A DNA stretch of 30,231 bases from a bacterium (GTDB lineage: Bacteria > Hydrothermota > UBA3072 > B12-G15). The notes below the pieces were generated by a model that was not told the DNA's origin, did no database searches, and saw nothing but the letters and a program-made list of their open reading frames with translations. The position numbers and the translations under genes were made by a program. Location: the NCBI GenBank assembly GCA_003646055.1, contig QNDZ01000002.1, positions 1 to 30,231 on the forward strand, given 5' to 3'. This document shows, one piece after another, positions 13,221 to 24,474 of this stretch (position 1 is its first letter; the number at the start of each line of letters is the position of its first letter).

Positions 13221-13821
13221 AATCATAGGGATTACAGATGACAGGTATATGGAAGGCAGGTTCTTTGAAAAGATTGAAAGGGCAATACAGGGAGGTGTGA
13301 GGGTCATAGAGATAAGGGAAAAGGGACTGACAGGTGCTGATTTTTTTGAAAAGGCAAAGGAGACACTGAAAATATGCAGGGAAAGAGGTGCAAAACTTAT
13401 TGTGAATGATAGGGTGGACATTGCTCTTGCCATAGGGGCAGATGGTGTCCATCTCGGGAAAAATGACCTGCCTGTTAAAGAGGTCAGGAGGATTTTTGAT
13501 GGTGTTATAGGGTGGACAGCAAGGAGTTTAGAGGATGCTTTAGTGGGTGAAGAAGCAGGTGCAGACTATGTAGGCGCAGGGAGTGTTTTCAGGTCGGAAA
13601 CAAAACAGGCAATGATTATTGGGATTGAAGGTTTAAAGAGAATTAAAGAGGCTGTGAATATACCTGTTGTTGCAGTTGGTGGGATCACCCATGATAATGT
13701 TGGTAGAGTTATGAAGGCAGGTGTTGATGGAATTGCTGTTTCACAGGCACTCTTTTCAGGGGATCCTTATGAGAATGCAGTTCATCTTCTCAGGATAATG
13801 GAGGGTTATGTCAATAATTAA
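13201..13821 (+). CDS. thiE: thiamine-phosphate synthase (ThiE family)
   Basis: A TIM-barrel enzyme joining the pyrimidine and thiazole moieties of thiamine. The 206 residues show ITDDRY, IEIREKG, IVNDRVDIALAIGADGVHLG, GADYVGAGSVF followed by TK, and PVVAVGGI near the end. NDR rather than NGR argues for ThiE over TenI. The usual Gln before REK is Glu here, a small departure. The best in-frame start is TTG at 13201, overlapping the accC end by 20 bases. No strong ribosome binding site is next to it (GGGAGA at 13178-13183 is far). The next in-frame ATG, 13249, would remove the first beta strand, so translation probably depends on coupling to accC. Confidence 0.85.
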   Translation: MLDWDIRIIGITDDRYMEGRFFEKIERAIQGGVRVIEIREKGLTGADFFEKAKETLKICRERGAKLIVNDRVDIALAIGADGVHLGKNDLPVKEVRRIFDGVIGWTARSLEDALVGEEAGADYVGAGSVFRSETKQAMIIGIEGLKRIKEAVNIPVVAVGGITHDNVGRVMKAGVDGIAVSQALFSGDPYENAVHLLRIMEGYVNN

Positions 13822-14404
13822 ATTTGCCTCCAAGGAGATAACCTGCAAGATTGTTTATTATGGTCCTGGAAGGGCAGGGAAGACCACAAACCTCCAGTAT
13901 CTTTTCACAAGGATTCCTGCAGAGAAGAAGAGTGACCTTGTCTCTCTTGCAACAGAGACAGACAGAACCCTTTTCTTTGATTTCCTTCCCATAGAACTTG
14001 GAAATTACAGAGGATTCAGAACAAGGTTCCAGCTTTACACTGTTCCCGGGCAGGTTTATTACAATGAGACCAGAAAACTTGTTTTACAGGGTGCTGATGG
14101 GGTTGTGTTTGTTGCTGATTCACAGGTGCTGAGATTTGAGGACAATATATTGAGCCTTGAGAATATGTTTGAAAATATGATAGCAAATGGTCTTGATGTT
14201 GAGAATACCCCTATTGTACTCCAGTACAACAAGAGGGACCTGAACGAGATTGTGAGTGTTGAGGAACTCCAGAAGGCACTCAACCCTGAGAATAAATACA
14301 GATATTTTGAGGCAATAGCAATTCAGGGTATGGGTGTTCCTGAGACATTCAAGGCTGTTGGAACACTCGTCCTCCAGAAGGTTAAGGAAAAACTGGGGAT
14401 ATGA
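13808..14404 (+). CDS. mglA: MglA-type small Ras-like GTPase
   Basis: A 198-residue Ras-like GTPase closely resembling Myxococcus MglA, the switch that sets cell polarity and places motility machines. The N-terminus (KFASKEITCKIVYYGPG) matches MglA, the P-loop is GPGRAGKTT (19-27), and the block SLATETDRTLFFDFLPIELG is nearly that of MglA. The switch II region is TVPGQVYYNETR, and the G4 motif YNKRDL. MglA normally works with a GAP, MglB, and effectors such as FrzS, SgmX or the T4P ATPases. No MglB/roadblock gene is in the window. It overlaps the thiE end and its own stop overlaps the tandem ATPase gene (ATGA), which points to joint function with that protein. Confidence 0.93.
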   Translation: MSIIKFASKEITCKIVYYGPGRAGKTTNLQYLFTRIPAEKKSDLVSLATETDRTLFFDFLPIELGNYRGFRTRFQLYTVPGQVYYNETRKLVLQGADGVVFVADSQVLRFEDNILSLENMFENMIANGLDVENTPIVLQYNKRDLNEIVSVEELQKALNPENKYRYFEAIAIQGMGVPETFKAVGTLVLQKVKEKLGI

Positions 14405-22378: not shown

Positions 22379-24061
22379 ATGATGAAGTGGATAAATAGAC
22401 TTTTGTGGACCTCTAATTTACTCAGCGTCCTGGTTGCTGTTCCGCTCCTTTTTTATGGATACCATTTTTTTGTTGGGTTACCGGATGAAACCATTGGTAA
22501 ATTCTACATATCTGCCTCAGTCATTGCACTACTTCTTGTTATTGCCTATGATATTTTCCACAGGGTTCGCCTGAAAAGGGTTGTTGGAAAAGGGGTTATA
22601 AGGTCGGTGTACTGGACACCCCAGTATCTGGGTCTTCATAAGTTTCTTGACTATGTCCTTTTTTCACCTGTTCTTTTTCTCCTTGTCCAGACAAAGATTA
22701 AGCTGCTTCCCATAAACCTGTTTTTCAAGGGAATGGTTCTGAATGTAGTAATTGGGCTTGTTGTTGGTTTGATTACATACTTCATTGCCTTCAGTATCCT
22801 TGTTCCAGTGTTTTCCGGGTACAAAGAATCATTCAAGGGTATTCCACTTAGATACAAATTGTTTGTTCCGTTGATTGTGCTTGTCTTATTCTCTTTCCTC
22901 GTTGGAATATTTTTCAAGGACAATCCTGGAAGTGCCTTGTGGCTTTTACTTTCAATTGCCTTCATATATTTTTATTCCTCCTTTGTGCTTAAACCCATCC
23001 TCCAGATAAATTCTGCCTTTTCCAGGTTCTTGTCCGAAAATCCTGACCTCAACAGAAAACTCATTATAAGAACAGGTGATGAGATTGAAACAATCGCAGA
23101 AAACTTCAATCAATTCCTTGATGTGGTAAAGGGGATATCTTCAAAGGTGTATGAAATTTCTAAAAAGGTTTCTGACTTTGCAGAAACCATATCTTCCACC
23201 ACAGAGGAGTTGACTGCCTCTGTTCAGGAAATATCAGCAAGTATAGAATCCATAAATACAGAAATCAACAATTCAAGTAATGAGATGGAAAAAATAAAGG
23301 TTGATGCAGAGACCCTCACTTCAATGGCAGAAAACATTGAGTCGCAGGTTAAGATGCTCCAGAAGATAGCACAGGATTCAGAGAACATAGCAAATGAGAG
23401 TGCGAGGAATACCCTTGAGGTACTCTCCACAGTTGAGGAAAACATGCGGTCTGTGGAGGTTCTCAACAATAAAATGGAGATGTTGATAAAGGCAAGCGAA
23501 GAGATTATGGGGTTTGCTGATATGGTTTCAGAGGTCGCAGAGGATACTGACCTTCTTGCATTGAATGCATCGGTTGAGGCTGCACGGGTTGGAGAACACG
23601 GTAAGGGTTTTGGTGTGATTGCTGAGGAGATAAGAAATCTGTCCAATCAGTCAAGGAATTACCTGAAGCAGGTTCTTGAGAGTCTGGACAGGGTTAAGAG
23701 TGCTGTGGATGAGTTTAAGAATGTAACCCAGACAAGCTGGGGTAAACTTTCTGGTACAATAGAATACCTTGATACAATAAACAAGTCCCTCCAGAAGATT
23801 TCAGAGGATGTGACACTCACAACAACAATGACCAATCAGGTTTCAGACACCATAAGGGAAGAGGTAAAGAATATATCAGTATTGTTTGAGGGGATTGATA
23901 AAATAAACAAGAGTTTTTCAAGCACTGCCTCTGCAATGGAGGAGATAGGAGCCTCCACAGAGGAGCAGATGGCAGCAATGCAGGAGTTTAGAAGCCTTAC
24001 AGAGGAAATGCTTAATACTGCAAAACTTCTAAAAAGGATGATTGAAAGATACCTTGTATGA
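22379..24061 (+). CDS. six-TM chemoreceptor (MCP) with HAMP domain
   Basis: A methyl-accepting chemotaxis protein of 560 residues. Six hydrophobic segments can be picked out in the first 202 residues (around 8-33, 41-61, 90-110, 117-142, 155-175, 184-202). No large periplasmic sensor domain is present, so sensing would be within the membrane or through partners. A HAMP domain follows (about 203-252, ending TGDEIETIAENFNQF). The long cytoplasmic helical hairpin has the conserved tip DLLALNASVEAARVGEHGKG at about 391-410, so CheW/CheA binding is expected. There is no C-terminal CheR-tethering pentapeptide. It sits between two CheW genes. Start may be 22382 rather than 22379. Confidence 0.93.
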   Translation: MMKWINRLLWTSNLLSVLVAVPLLFYGYHFFVGLPDETIGKFYISASVIALLLVIAYDIFHRVRLKRVVGKGVIRSVYWTPQYLGLHKFLDYVLFSPVLFLLVQTKIKLLPINLFFKGMVLNVVIGLVVGLITYFIAFSILVPVFSGYKESFKGIPLRYKLFVPLIVLVLFSFLVGIFFKDNPGSALWLLLSIAFIYFYSSFVLKPILQINSAFSRFLSENPDLNRKLIIRTGDEIETIAENFNQFLDVVKGISSKVYEISKKVSDFAETISSTTEELTASVQEISASIESINTEINNSSNEMEKIKVDAETLTSMAENIESQVKMLQKIAQDSENIANESARNTLEVLSTVEENMRSVEVLNNKMEMLIKASEEIMGFADMVSEVAEDTDLLALNASVEAARVGEHGKGFGVIAEEIRNLSNQSRNYLKQVLESLDRVKSAVDEFKNVTQTSWGKLSGTIEYLDTINKSLQKISEDVTLTTTMTNQVSDTIREEVKNISVLFEGIDKINKSFSSTASAMEEIGASTEEQMAAMQEFRSLTEEMLNTAKLLKRMIERYLV

Positions 24062-24474
24062 ATATCCTTTTATTTTATGTTGATAATAGCCTGATGGGTG
24101 TACCCATTGATGATATTAAAGAGGTGGGTAAGAAGCAGAGGATAAGAAAGATTCCCCGTGCTCCTTTTTACATAAGGGGTTATACAAAACACAGGGGGAA
24201 CGTGTATCTGGTTGTTGGATTGCCAGAGATGTTAAAACTTAATGAAGAGGGACATCATCTAATTTTTCCTTCTTCAATCCCTGATGTTTGTTTTGTCGTT
24301 GGGAACATTGTGGGTATCAATAATCTAAATTTCTATCCCAAACCTGATGTGCTTCCCATGAAGTATGTAAAGGGTTTTGGAGAATTTAATCATGAGATTG
24401 CGGTTATTATTGACCTTGAAGGCCTGATAAAGGGTAAAAGGATTTCAAAGATAAGGAGTATGGTGAAGCCATGA
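24058..24474 (+). CDS. small divergent CheW-like protein
   Basis: A 138-residue protein with a recognisable CheW core: LLFYVDNSLMGVPIDDIKEV at the start, then IRKIPRAPFYIRGYTKHRGN and VYLVVGLPEML, and IAVIIDLEGLIKG near the C-terminus. It is more divergent than the upstream CheW and lacks the Lys-rich tail. The ATG overlaps the receptor stop (ATGA), and cinA starts in its own stop. It might be a second coupling protein or a competitor or adaptor for the receptor array. Assignment to the CheW fold is probable, not certain. Confidence 0.75.
   Translation: MNILLFYVDNSLMGVPIDDIKEVGKKQRIRKIPRAPFYIRGYTKHRGNVYLVVGLPEMLKLNEEGHHLIFPSSIPDVCFVVGNIVGINNLNFYPKPDVLPMKYVKGFGEFNHEIAVIIDLEGLIKGKRISKIRSMVKP

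What the first reader, a model, noticed from the sequence alone, without database searches (positions are those of the whole stretch)
13808..24474. Candidate undescribed polarity/chemosensory module: MglA, tandem DnaA-like ATPase, PATAN-TPR, CheRDB, TPR, ExeA, CheW, MCP, CheW
Eleven consecutive genes overlap or touch and mix two worlds: Ras-like polarity control and chemoreceptor signalling with adaptation enzymes. A tandem DnaA-like ATPase and an ExeA-like ATPase are embedded among them, and a PilT-family gene lies two genes upstream of mglA. Known MglA systems use MglB and Frz-type pathways, none of which has this composition to my knowledge. I infer a receptor array that controls pilus polarity or assembly.
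Basis: partly seen in the sequence, partly recalled or inferred. Interest (0 to 1): 0.85.

Follow-up and report, generated by a model that had tools for sequence, protein, structure and literature searches.

The report
Chemosensory GTPase operon, probably steering pili
A row of genes conserved across a little-studied bacterial phylum joins chemotaxis-type sensing proteins, a Ras-like switch and a protein rebuilt from the replication starter DnaA, probably so that cells without flagella can choose where to use their pili.

Summary
Eleven tightly packed genes (13808-24474) encode MglA, a tandem DnaA-type ATPase, PATAN(DUF4388)-TPR, CheR, CheD, CheB, TPR, ExeA-type ATPase, CheW, a 6-TM receptor and CheW. 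The host is a WOR-3-phylum MAG. The ATPase is in 55 of 147 genomes (13 of 37 families). PATAN-TPR follows it in 53 of 53 testable loci, and a small GTPase and/or Roadblock gene sits just upstream in 50 of 54. CheA tracks it: 42 of 55 versus 3 of 92. CheR in the locus agrees with CheA in the genome in 48 of 51. The missing CheA/CheY/CheC half is a second operon, joined to the first in two families. No genome with the ATPase has FlhA; PilT lies upstream in 18 of 18 testable loci of the window's MglA type. Best reading: a chemosensory system steering type IV pili through MglA/Roadblock and PATAN-TPR, with a DnaA-derived scaffold whose helical linker (WEMKGF) is its best-conserved part. Pilus output and ATPase role are inferred. 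PATAN beside mglA is in print; my searches found no description of this system.

The parts
10786..11880 (+). PilT-family type IV pilus ATPase, upstream in the same gene run
   Evidence: T2SSE; TIGR01420 462.6 bits, cut-off 319.1; PilT 1-3 genes upstream in 18 of 18 MglA2 loci that have upstream sequence
13808..14404 (+). MglA2: MglA-family small GTPase, operon paralogue
   Evidence: PF00025/PF00071; E=4e-72 to solved MglA; clade of 18 operon MglAs, support 100/99
14401..16290 (+). Tandem DnaA-type ATPase: AAA1 (about 1-186), helical linker with WEMKGF (about 205-325), AAA2 (about 340-505), mostly low-confidence acidic tail
   Evidence: PF00308, DnaA domain III fold of both halves, linker most conserved, model
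16292..17887 (+). PATAN (DUF4388) with MshEN-like tandem motif, then TPR superhelix
   Evidence: PF14332, TPR; NF053729 62 bits, cut-off 38; alignment A4; model
17871..18638 (+). CheR methyltransferase
   Evidence: PF01739 E=4e-52
18635..19111 (+). CheD receptor deamidase
   Evidence: PF03975 E=3e-27
19108..20136 (+). CheB methylesterase with receiver domain
   Evidence: PF01339 and PF00072; NF001965 over its cut-off
20133..20897 (+). TPR protein
   Evidence: TPR families; a gene matching its profile is in 32 of 55 loci, the window included
20890..21702 (+). ExeA/GspA-type ATPase, accessory
   Evidence: AAA_22; TIGR03015 220 bits, below its cut-off of 324.5; 7 of 55 loci
21704..22378 (+). CheW with basic N-terminal extension
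   Evidence: PF01584
22379..24061 (+). Chemoreceptor: six predicted TM helices, HAMP, MCP signalling domain
   Evidence: PF00015, PF00672; hydropathy
24058..24474 (+). Second CheW-like protein
   Evidence: PF01584

Best explanation
The operon is the output and adaptation half of a chemosensory system that, in this phylum, steers type IV pili rather than flagella. Receptors (the 6-TM receptor here, an SBP-fused receptor without TM helices in the second operon) and CheW form arrays with CheA; CheR, CheD and CheB adapt them. The signal passes through CheY to an MglA-family GTPase (MglA2 here) and Roadblock partners. The GTPase state sets where a DnaA-derived, ATP-binding scaffold and its constant partner PATAN-TPR assemble, and PATAN-TPR acts on the pilus motors PilB/PilT at the chosen pole. 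Shown by sequence: gene content, conserved order, joint presence and absence of CheA and CheRDB, the two operons joined in two families, DnaA fold without a matched DNA-binding domain, linker conservation. Inferred: signal direction, physical contacts, scaffold role, pilus output.
For: ATPase in 55 of 147 genomes, 13 of 37 families. PATAN-TPR next gene in 53 of 53 testable; GTPase and/or Roadblock upstream in 50 of 54; CheR in locus agrees with CheA in genome in 48 of 51. CheA in 42 of 55 ATPase genomes versus 3 of 92 others, Fisher 1e-21 uncorrected for kinship; by family 12 of 13 versus 2 of 24, p=6e-7. CheY-CheA-CheC-TPR-PATAN-Roadblock genes joined to ATPase-PATAN-TPR-CheRDB in G017, and receptor-CheW-CheY-CheA-CheC-TPR genes joined to the same module in G096. 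Clade g69 (7 genomes) lacks CheA and CheRDB and keeps Roadblock-ATPase-PATAN-TPR. Two MglA lineages occupy the slot. No FlhA in the 55; 4 strong FlhA matches among 147. PilT in 18 of 18 testable MglA2 loci. A PATAN response regulator is reported to interact with PilB1 in Synechocystis (PMC7690835, passages and reference title); two PATAN proteins co-occur with the MglA effector SgmX in STRING (PMC11580455, passages).
Against: No interaction or phenotype data. PilT and PilM are common in the phylum with or without the ATPase (66 and 69 of 92 ATPase-negative genomes); PilT is enriched (54 of 55, p=2e-5) but PilM is not significantly (49 of 55, p=0.05). PilM was not found in G008, G009 and G038, which have the module. 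PilT adjacency is confined to the MglA2 families and their kin. G012, G103 and clade g69 keep the ATPase without CheA. G050 and G095 have CheA without the ATPase. Slot Roadblock proteins tested by Pfam score just under its cut-off (22.8, 22.4 and 20.8 against 23). Homologue L068 (Gemmatimonadetes-labelled MAG) shows no mglA, PATAN-TPR, CheR/D/B, CheW or MCP match within its 21.9 kb. The first isolate of the WOR-3 lineage, sy37, has pili but motility was not observed (PMC12285271, passages); whether it carries the module is unknown.
Confidence: 0.6

Rival explanations
1. A chemosensory system of the alternative-cellular-function kind: the same proteins form one pathway, but the output is c-di-GMP, adhesion or gene expression and not pilus polarity.
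For: GGDEF proteins in 55 of 55 ATPase genomes versus 43 of 92 others; PATAN-TPR carries MshEN-like c-di-GMP motifs; PilM only weakly enriched.
Against: PilT sits in the operon of MglA2 lineages; MglA and PATAN proteins elsewhere are tied to pili.
Confidence: 0.17
2. A DNA-linked function such as natural transformation: the DnaA-type ATPase, PilT, CinA and RecA act together in DNA uptake.
For: CinA, LigT and RecA follow closely in the window and in several relatives; ParA and ParB lie beside Roadblock-ATPase in L090.
Against: No match to a DnaA DNA-binding domain in the ATPase. CinA and RecA are not seen beside the module in the families of L089-L110 that keep ATPase-PATAN-TPR. Does not explain the link to CheA and CheRDB.
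Confidence: 0.09
3. The ATPase is a Hda-like replication regulator that travels in the operon; the remainder is a Frz- or Chp-like system.
For: Both AAA domains are closest to DnaA, the first also to Hda.
Against: PATAN-TPR is next to it in 53 of 53 testable loci, and 12 of the 13 families that have it have CheA. One AAA domain is degenerate or missing in several families while the linker stays.
Confidence: 0.1
4. A stable super-operon of unrelated housekeeping and signalling genes with no joint function.
For: The run also holds accC, thiE and cinA.
Against: Flanking genes change between families while ATPase-PATAN-TPR persists with GTPase/Roadblock genes, and absence of CheA goes with absence of CheR in the locus.
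Confidence: 0.04

Closest known systems
Myxococcus xanthus Frz - MglA/MglB - SgmX/FrzS/SopA pilus polarity network
   Same: Chemosensory input, MglA GTPase, Roadblock partner and TPR protein acting on pilus formation; PATAN proteins co-occur with SgmX (PMC11580455, passages)
   Different: In M. xanthus mglA is not near the genes of these partners (PMC4316618); no DnaA-derived ATPase is mentioned in what I read; here the parts lie in one or two operons
Cyanobacterial tax/pix systems with PATAN response regulators
   Same: Che-type arrays thought to act on pili through PATAN proteins (PMC7690835, passages)
   Different: There PATAN is fused to a CheY-like receiver; here to TPRs. No MglA or DnaA-type ATPase in the passages read
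Pseudomonas aeruginosa Pil-Chp
   Same: Chemosensory control of type IV pili (PMC10519157, listing only)
   Different: No MglA-Roadblock switch or DnaA-type ATPase, and a CheA with several Hpt domains (recalled); the CheA here matches one Hpt
DnaA and Hda
   Different: Two AAA domains in one chain, conserved helical linker, no match to a DnaA DNA-binding domain
MglA-PATAN and MglB-PATAN gene neighbourhoods
   Same: Association noted in print (PMC4316618 section 18, citing Makarova et al. 2006)
   Different: Described as occasional neighbours, with no ATPase or CheRDB module in that section

Membership tests
MglA family of small GTPases | Sequence match to characterised MglA, with PGQ motif and intrinsic arginine | tested here: met
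   E=4e-72 to 5ymx/6izw, 1e-66 to 3t12/3t1o; the window has both PGQ and TDRT; among 58 MglA rows PGQ in 57, RTLFF in 47
MglA family of small GTPases | mglB coupled within four genes | tested here: not met
   Roadblock matches of this genome are on C115, C161, C76 and C177, none in the window. Other families carry one in the same slot. 390 of 449 small MglA members are coupled in PMC4316618, so lack of coupling does not exclude membership
DnaA | AAA+ domain III | tested here: met
DnaA | C-terminal DNA-binding domain IV | tested here: not met
   No DnaA C-terminal family among Pfam matches at E up to 0.001; the tail after about residue 523 is mostly of low confidence
Hda | NCBIfam Hda equivalog score | tested here: not met
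   TIGR03420 72.7 bits, cut-off 194.8; clamp-binding motif not examined
PATAN proteins | DUF4388 match | tested here: met
   PF14332 119.8 bits, cut-off 25
PATAN response regulators (PixG, PixE, PatA) | Receiver domain fused to PATAN | tested here: not met
   TPR repeats instead; no receiver match among the 25 families shown
MshEN c-di-GMP receptors | Two 24-residue RLG motifs | tested here: inconclusive
   Of 51 PATAN-TPR proteins the pattern found a first motif in 37 (R/K first in 35) and a second in 43 (R/K in 34), one or both missing in 16; the window itself reads KIG and LLG; binding untested
Chemosensory (Che) pathway | CheA, CheW, receptor and CheY present | tested here: met
   CheA with Hpt, P2, dimer, kinase and CheW-like domains on C230; CheW and receiver protein on C206; receptors and CheW in the window
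Roadblock/LC7 (slot proteins) | Pfam Robl_LC7 over cut-off | tested here: inconclusive
   Slot members of L054, L052 and L041 score 22.8, 22.4 and 20.8 against 23; the profile built from them matches two clear Roadblock proteins of the window's genome at 111 and 98 bits
Frz system | Frz-type gene set (FrzCD, FrzE, FrzZ) | not tested
   No comparison with Frz proteins was run
SgmX | 14-TPR architecture with MglA-binding C-terminal TPRs | not tested
   TPR superhelix modelled, no comparison with the SgmX sequence

The most novel reading that the evidence does not exclude
A DnaA-family protein has been rebuilt into a polarity device. Two DnaA-type AAA domains joined by a unique helical linker (WEMKGF) form an ATP-dependent scaffold that reads a Ras-like GTPase/Roadblock switch and hands the signal to PATAN-TPR, which also senses c-di-GMP. 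Pilus position would thus be set by three inputs: CheA phosphorylation, GTP state and c-di-GMP.
Probability: 0.3. Interest if true: 0.85.

Novelty: new variant of a known kind. Interest (0 to 1): 0.68.

Why it matters
MglA, PATAN proteins, TPR adaptors and Che arrays have each been tied to type IV pili in separate model organisms. Here one phylum keeps them together, in two families in a single cluster (G017, G096), which gives a defined parts list for how a chemosensory array talks to a Ras-like switch. It adds a constant part that I did not meet in what I read of the models, a DnaA-derived ATPase without a matched DNA-binding domain, and so a testable case of a replication-initiator fold moved to cell polarity. 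Lineages without CheA and CheRDB that keep ATPase-PATAN-TPR split the system into an input and an output part.

Tried and rejected
Viral contigs: one scan with PATAN-TPR found no relative. Plasmids: tblastn with the ATPase found no match. Outside the phylum: the genome-contig scan rested on one pattern (K[LI]Y[VI]W[EK]MK) and gave 28 loci; apart from L068 (labelled Gemmatimonadetes) they bear WOR-3, TA06 or Stahlbacteria names or have the contig length of a genome of the phylum set. Distribution elsewhere is therefore poorly tested. Three protein-database searches gave no named relative from another phylum, but few hits bear names.

Linker elsewhere: a region search and an alignment search of 40 relatives found it only in this ATPase, apart from one marginal hit (E=0.005). 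Fold search for the linker: whole-model searches were filled by AAA domains, so the linker's fold is untested. PATAN-TPR fold search was filled by TPRs.

First idea that one MglA lineage always fills the slot: the tree needs two changes of label, and 1% of 200 bootstrap trees need one; the f11 group sits on a branch of 1.39, so its exact place is unsure. First idea that the ATPase needs both AAA domains: rejected. c-di-GMP binding by the window's own PATAN is weakened by its KIG and LLG motifs. The 141-residue and 99-residue genes upstream of the ATPase in L098 and L099 do not match the slot Roadblock profile.

Rows dropped: one search left out 14 loci that duplicate G-genome loci and removed identical sequences (69 to 57); one search left out named duplicate loci before the MglA tree; one search left out 25 named loci and proteins under 430 bits or 400 residues; one search set aside 4 loci with at most 2.2 kb downstream for the CheR count, 2 for the PATAN count, and I set aside G014 (contig edge) for the slot count. 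G051 was counted as ATPase-negative, though its match (167 bits, cut by a short open frame) follows an MglA gene and is probably the ATPase; moving it, and counting G096's CheA found by my own profile, gives 44 of 56 versus 2 of 91. No correction for kinship beyond the family-level count was made.
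Full report
What is there. The window is one whole contig (C2) of a 1.87 Mb, 277-contig MAG, 80.6% complete. A congener with the same gene order (G001, contig of 16,633 bases) is recorded as candidate division WOR-3 bacterium AUK059 (L061). The eleven genes of the finding are confirmed with their domains. They continue an upstream run that includes BCCP, PilT, AccC and ThiE, and are followed by CinA, LigT, a membrane protein and RecA.

Conservation. A search of 60 relatives with the ATPase gave loci whose neighbourhoods I annotated by BLAST and profile. 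I then searched the 147 held genomes of the phylum. Matches above 200 bits, against about 175 bits or less for plain DnaA, mark 55 genomes in 13 of 37 families. I examined a locus from each of the 55 (loci; scripts). PATAN-TPR is the next gene in 53 of 53 with enough sequence. Within two genes upstream are MglA alone (20), MglA plus Roadblock (9), Roadblock alone (21) or neither (5, one at a contig edge). Slot Roadblock proteins of three loci score just under Pfam's cut-off (22.8, 22.4, 20.8 against 23); a profile of slot members matches two Roadblock proteins of the window's genome, C115 and C177, at 111 and 98 bits, and these are over the Pfam cut-off. PilT lies one to three genes upstream in 18 of 18 MglA2 loci that have upstream sequence, the window included.

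Two operons, one system. The window has no CheA or CheY. In its genome CheA and CheC with the start of a TPR protein lie on C230, an SBP_bac_5 domain with CheW and a CheY-type receiver on C206, TPR, PATAN and TPR-Roadblock proteins on C161, and Roadblock plus a TamB-like protein on C115. Relatives show these as one operon: receptor-CheW-CheY-CheA-CheC-TPR-PATAN-Roadblock (L115, L117, L118). In G017 the CheY-CheA-CheC-TPR-PATAN-Roadblock genes run straight into ATPase-PATAN-TPR-CheR-CheD-CheB, with a PilB-type ATPase (MshEN plus T2SSE) nearby on the other strand; in G096 receptor-CheW-CheY-CheA-CheC-TPR genes run into the same module. Most names in these relatives rest on my own profiles, some of them weak (receptor and CheW of G096 about 41 bits).

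Co-occurrence. CheA (PF02895) is in 42 of 55 ATPase genomes and 3 of 92 others; by family 12 of 13 against 2 of 24 (counting G096's CheA found by my own profile). CheR in the locus and CheA in the genome agree in 48 of 51 (39 both, 9 neither). The three exceptions are G122 (CheA, no CheR) and G025 and G102 (CheR, no CheA found; 77% and 79% complete). The nine with neither, clade g69 (seven genomes), G012 and G103, keep ATPase-PATAN-TPR. FlhA: 5 of 147 match, 4 strongly, none with the ATPase or CheA. PilT over cut-off: 54 of 55 versus 66 of 92, p=2e-5. PilM: 49 of 55 versus 69 of 92, p=0.05. GGDEF: 55 of 55 versus 43 of 92. These genome-level tests are not corrected for kinship.

The ATPase. 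Both halves have the DnaA domain III fold; no DNA-binding domain was matched. In 57 homologues the helical linker is the best-conserved region (mean majority frequency 0.56, against 0.45 for AAA1 and 0.32 for AAA2). Positions corresponding to W236, K239, G240, F241, L271, E295, L298, F299 and P301 are at 93% or more. AAA2 is missing in families f2 and f12 and in two members of g69, its P-loop is altered in f18, and the AAA1 P-loop is lost in f13. The WEMK part varies most in the CheA-lacking clade g69, but it is intact in G012 and L068, so its conservation does not simply follow CheA. The linker was found once per genome, in this protein, in the relatives searched (one marginal hit aside). I infer a scaffold whose linker is the docking site; that is not shown.

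The GTPase. A tree of 58 MglA proteins separates operon MglA2 (18 rows, support 100/99) from the rest, which include canonical MglA1. A third, long-branch group of 10 in family f11 also fills the slot; all 10 read DQTLFF where the window reads DRTLFF. That this arginine is the intrinsic arginine finger described in PMC4316618 is recalled by position. The labels need two changes on the tree, so two GTPase lineages appear to have come to lie beside the ATPase, which argues for a functional tie.

PATAN-TPR. DUF4388 plus TPR superhelix. NCBIfam sees an MshE-type c-di-GMP motif. The alignment shows two RLG-type motifs in most homologues, similar to the MshEN consensus (PMC5013675, abstract and passages), though the glycine of the first motif is often absent and the window's own copies read KIG and LLG.

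Known context. PMC4316618 (section 18; passages) reports that some Group 1 and 5 MglA genes are near PATAN genes and cites Makarova et al. 2006 for MglB. PMC11580455 (passages) names two PATAN proteins co-occurring with SgmX. PMC7690835 (passages) says that PATAN domains are thought to act on the pilus machinery, and cites a paper whose title reports PixE interacting with PilB1. Searches combining MglA, PATAN and chemosensory, MglA, DnaA-like, DUF4388 and CheR (none), MglA, roadblock and chemosensory, WOR-3, chemotaxis and MglA, DnaA and polarity (none), Stahlbacteria and motility and PATAN with MglB listed nothing that by title or abstract describes this module. The library holds open-licence papers only, and most listed papers were not opened.

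Verdict. The module is real, spread over 13 families of the phylum, and coherent. It is a new variant of chemosensory control through MglA, with a DnaA-derived ATPase as a new constant part. The pilus output is the likeliest reading but is not shown.

Noticed in passing
L115:11393-14581, L117:11480-14833, L118:11597-14851; C-terminal part in the window's genome on C206 (L001:1-1497): Second-operon chemoreceptor of about 1050-1120 residues with no predicted TM helix, an MCP domain near the N-terminus and an SBP_bac_5 (solute-binding) domain at the C-terminus: apparently a cytoplasmic receptor carrying a normally exported sensor.
   Followed up: partly
L043:16614-19901 and L046:1666-5025: Genes of 1096 and 1119 residues that match the MCP profile weakly (63 and 67 bits), of the size of the second-operon receptor, lie divergent upstream of BCCP-PilT in G019 and G025.
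   Followed up: no
window 22379-24061: The receptor has six predicted TM helices and no recognised sensor domain; sensing may be within the membrane.
   Followed up: partly
L074, L078, L096, L103-L107, L112, L113 (family f11): Long-branch MglA with DQTLFF in place of DRTLFF in 10 of 10, that is, without the putative arginine finger.
   Followed up: partly
L090:7429-9031: In the CheA-lacking clade ParA-like and ParB genes sit directly before Roadblock-ATPase; genes of similar length sit there in other members of the clade.
   Followed up: partly
L068:7205-12019: Gemmatimonadetes-labelled MAG: tandem DnaA-type protein with strong Bac_DnaA matches and the same WEMKGF linker beside an 898-residue TPR protein, without module genes near it; DUF4388 has 12 matches elsewhere in that genome.
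   Followed up: partly
G010, G144, G021, G032: The four members of the phylum with strong FlhA matches show no CheA match.
   Followed up: no
L058 (C115), L118:63-3248: Second operon ends with a TamB-like protein of about 1060 residues next to Roadblock.
   Followed up: no
L123 (G017), L124 (G105): Separate additional che clusters in these two genomes (by profile only).
   Followed up: no
L100 (G117): A second, diverged copy of the ATPase, not next to PATAN-TPR.
   Followed up: no
window 26128-27081: Membrane protein without Pfam match, also found between LigT and RecA genes in L035.
   Followed up: no
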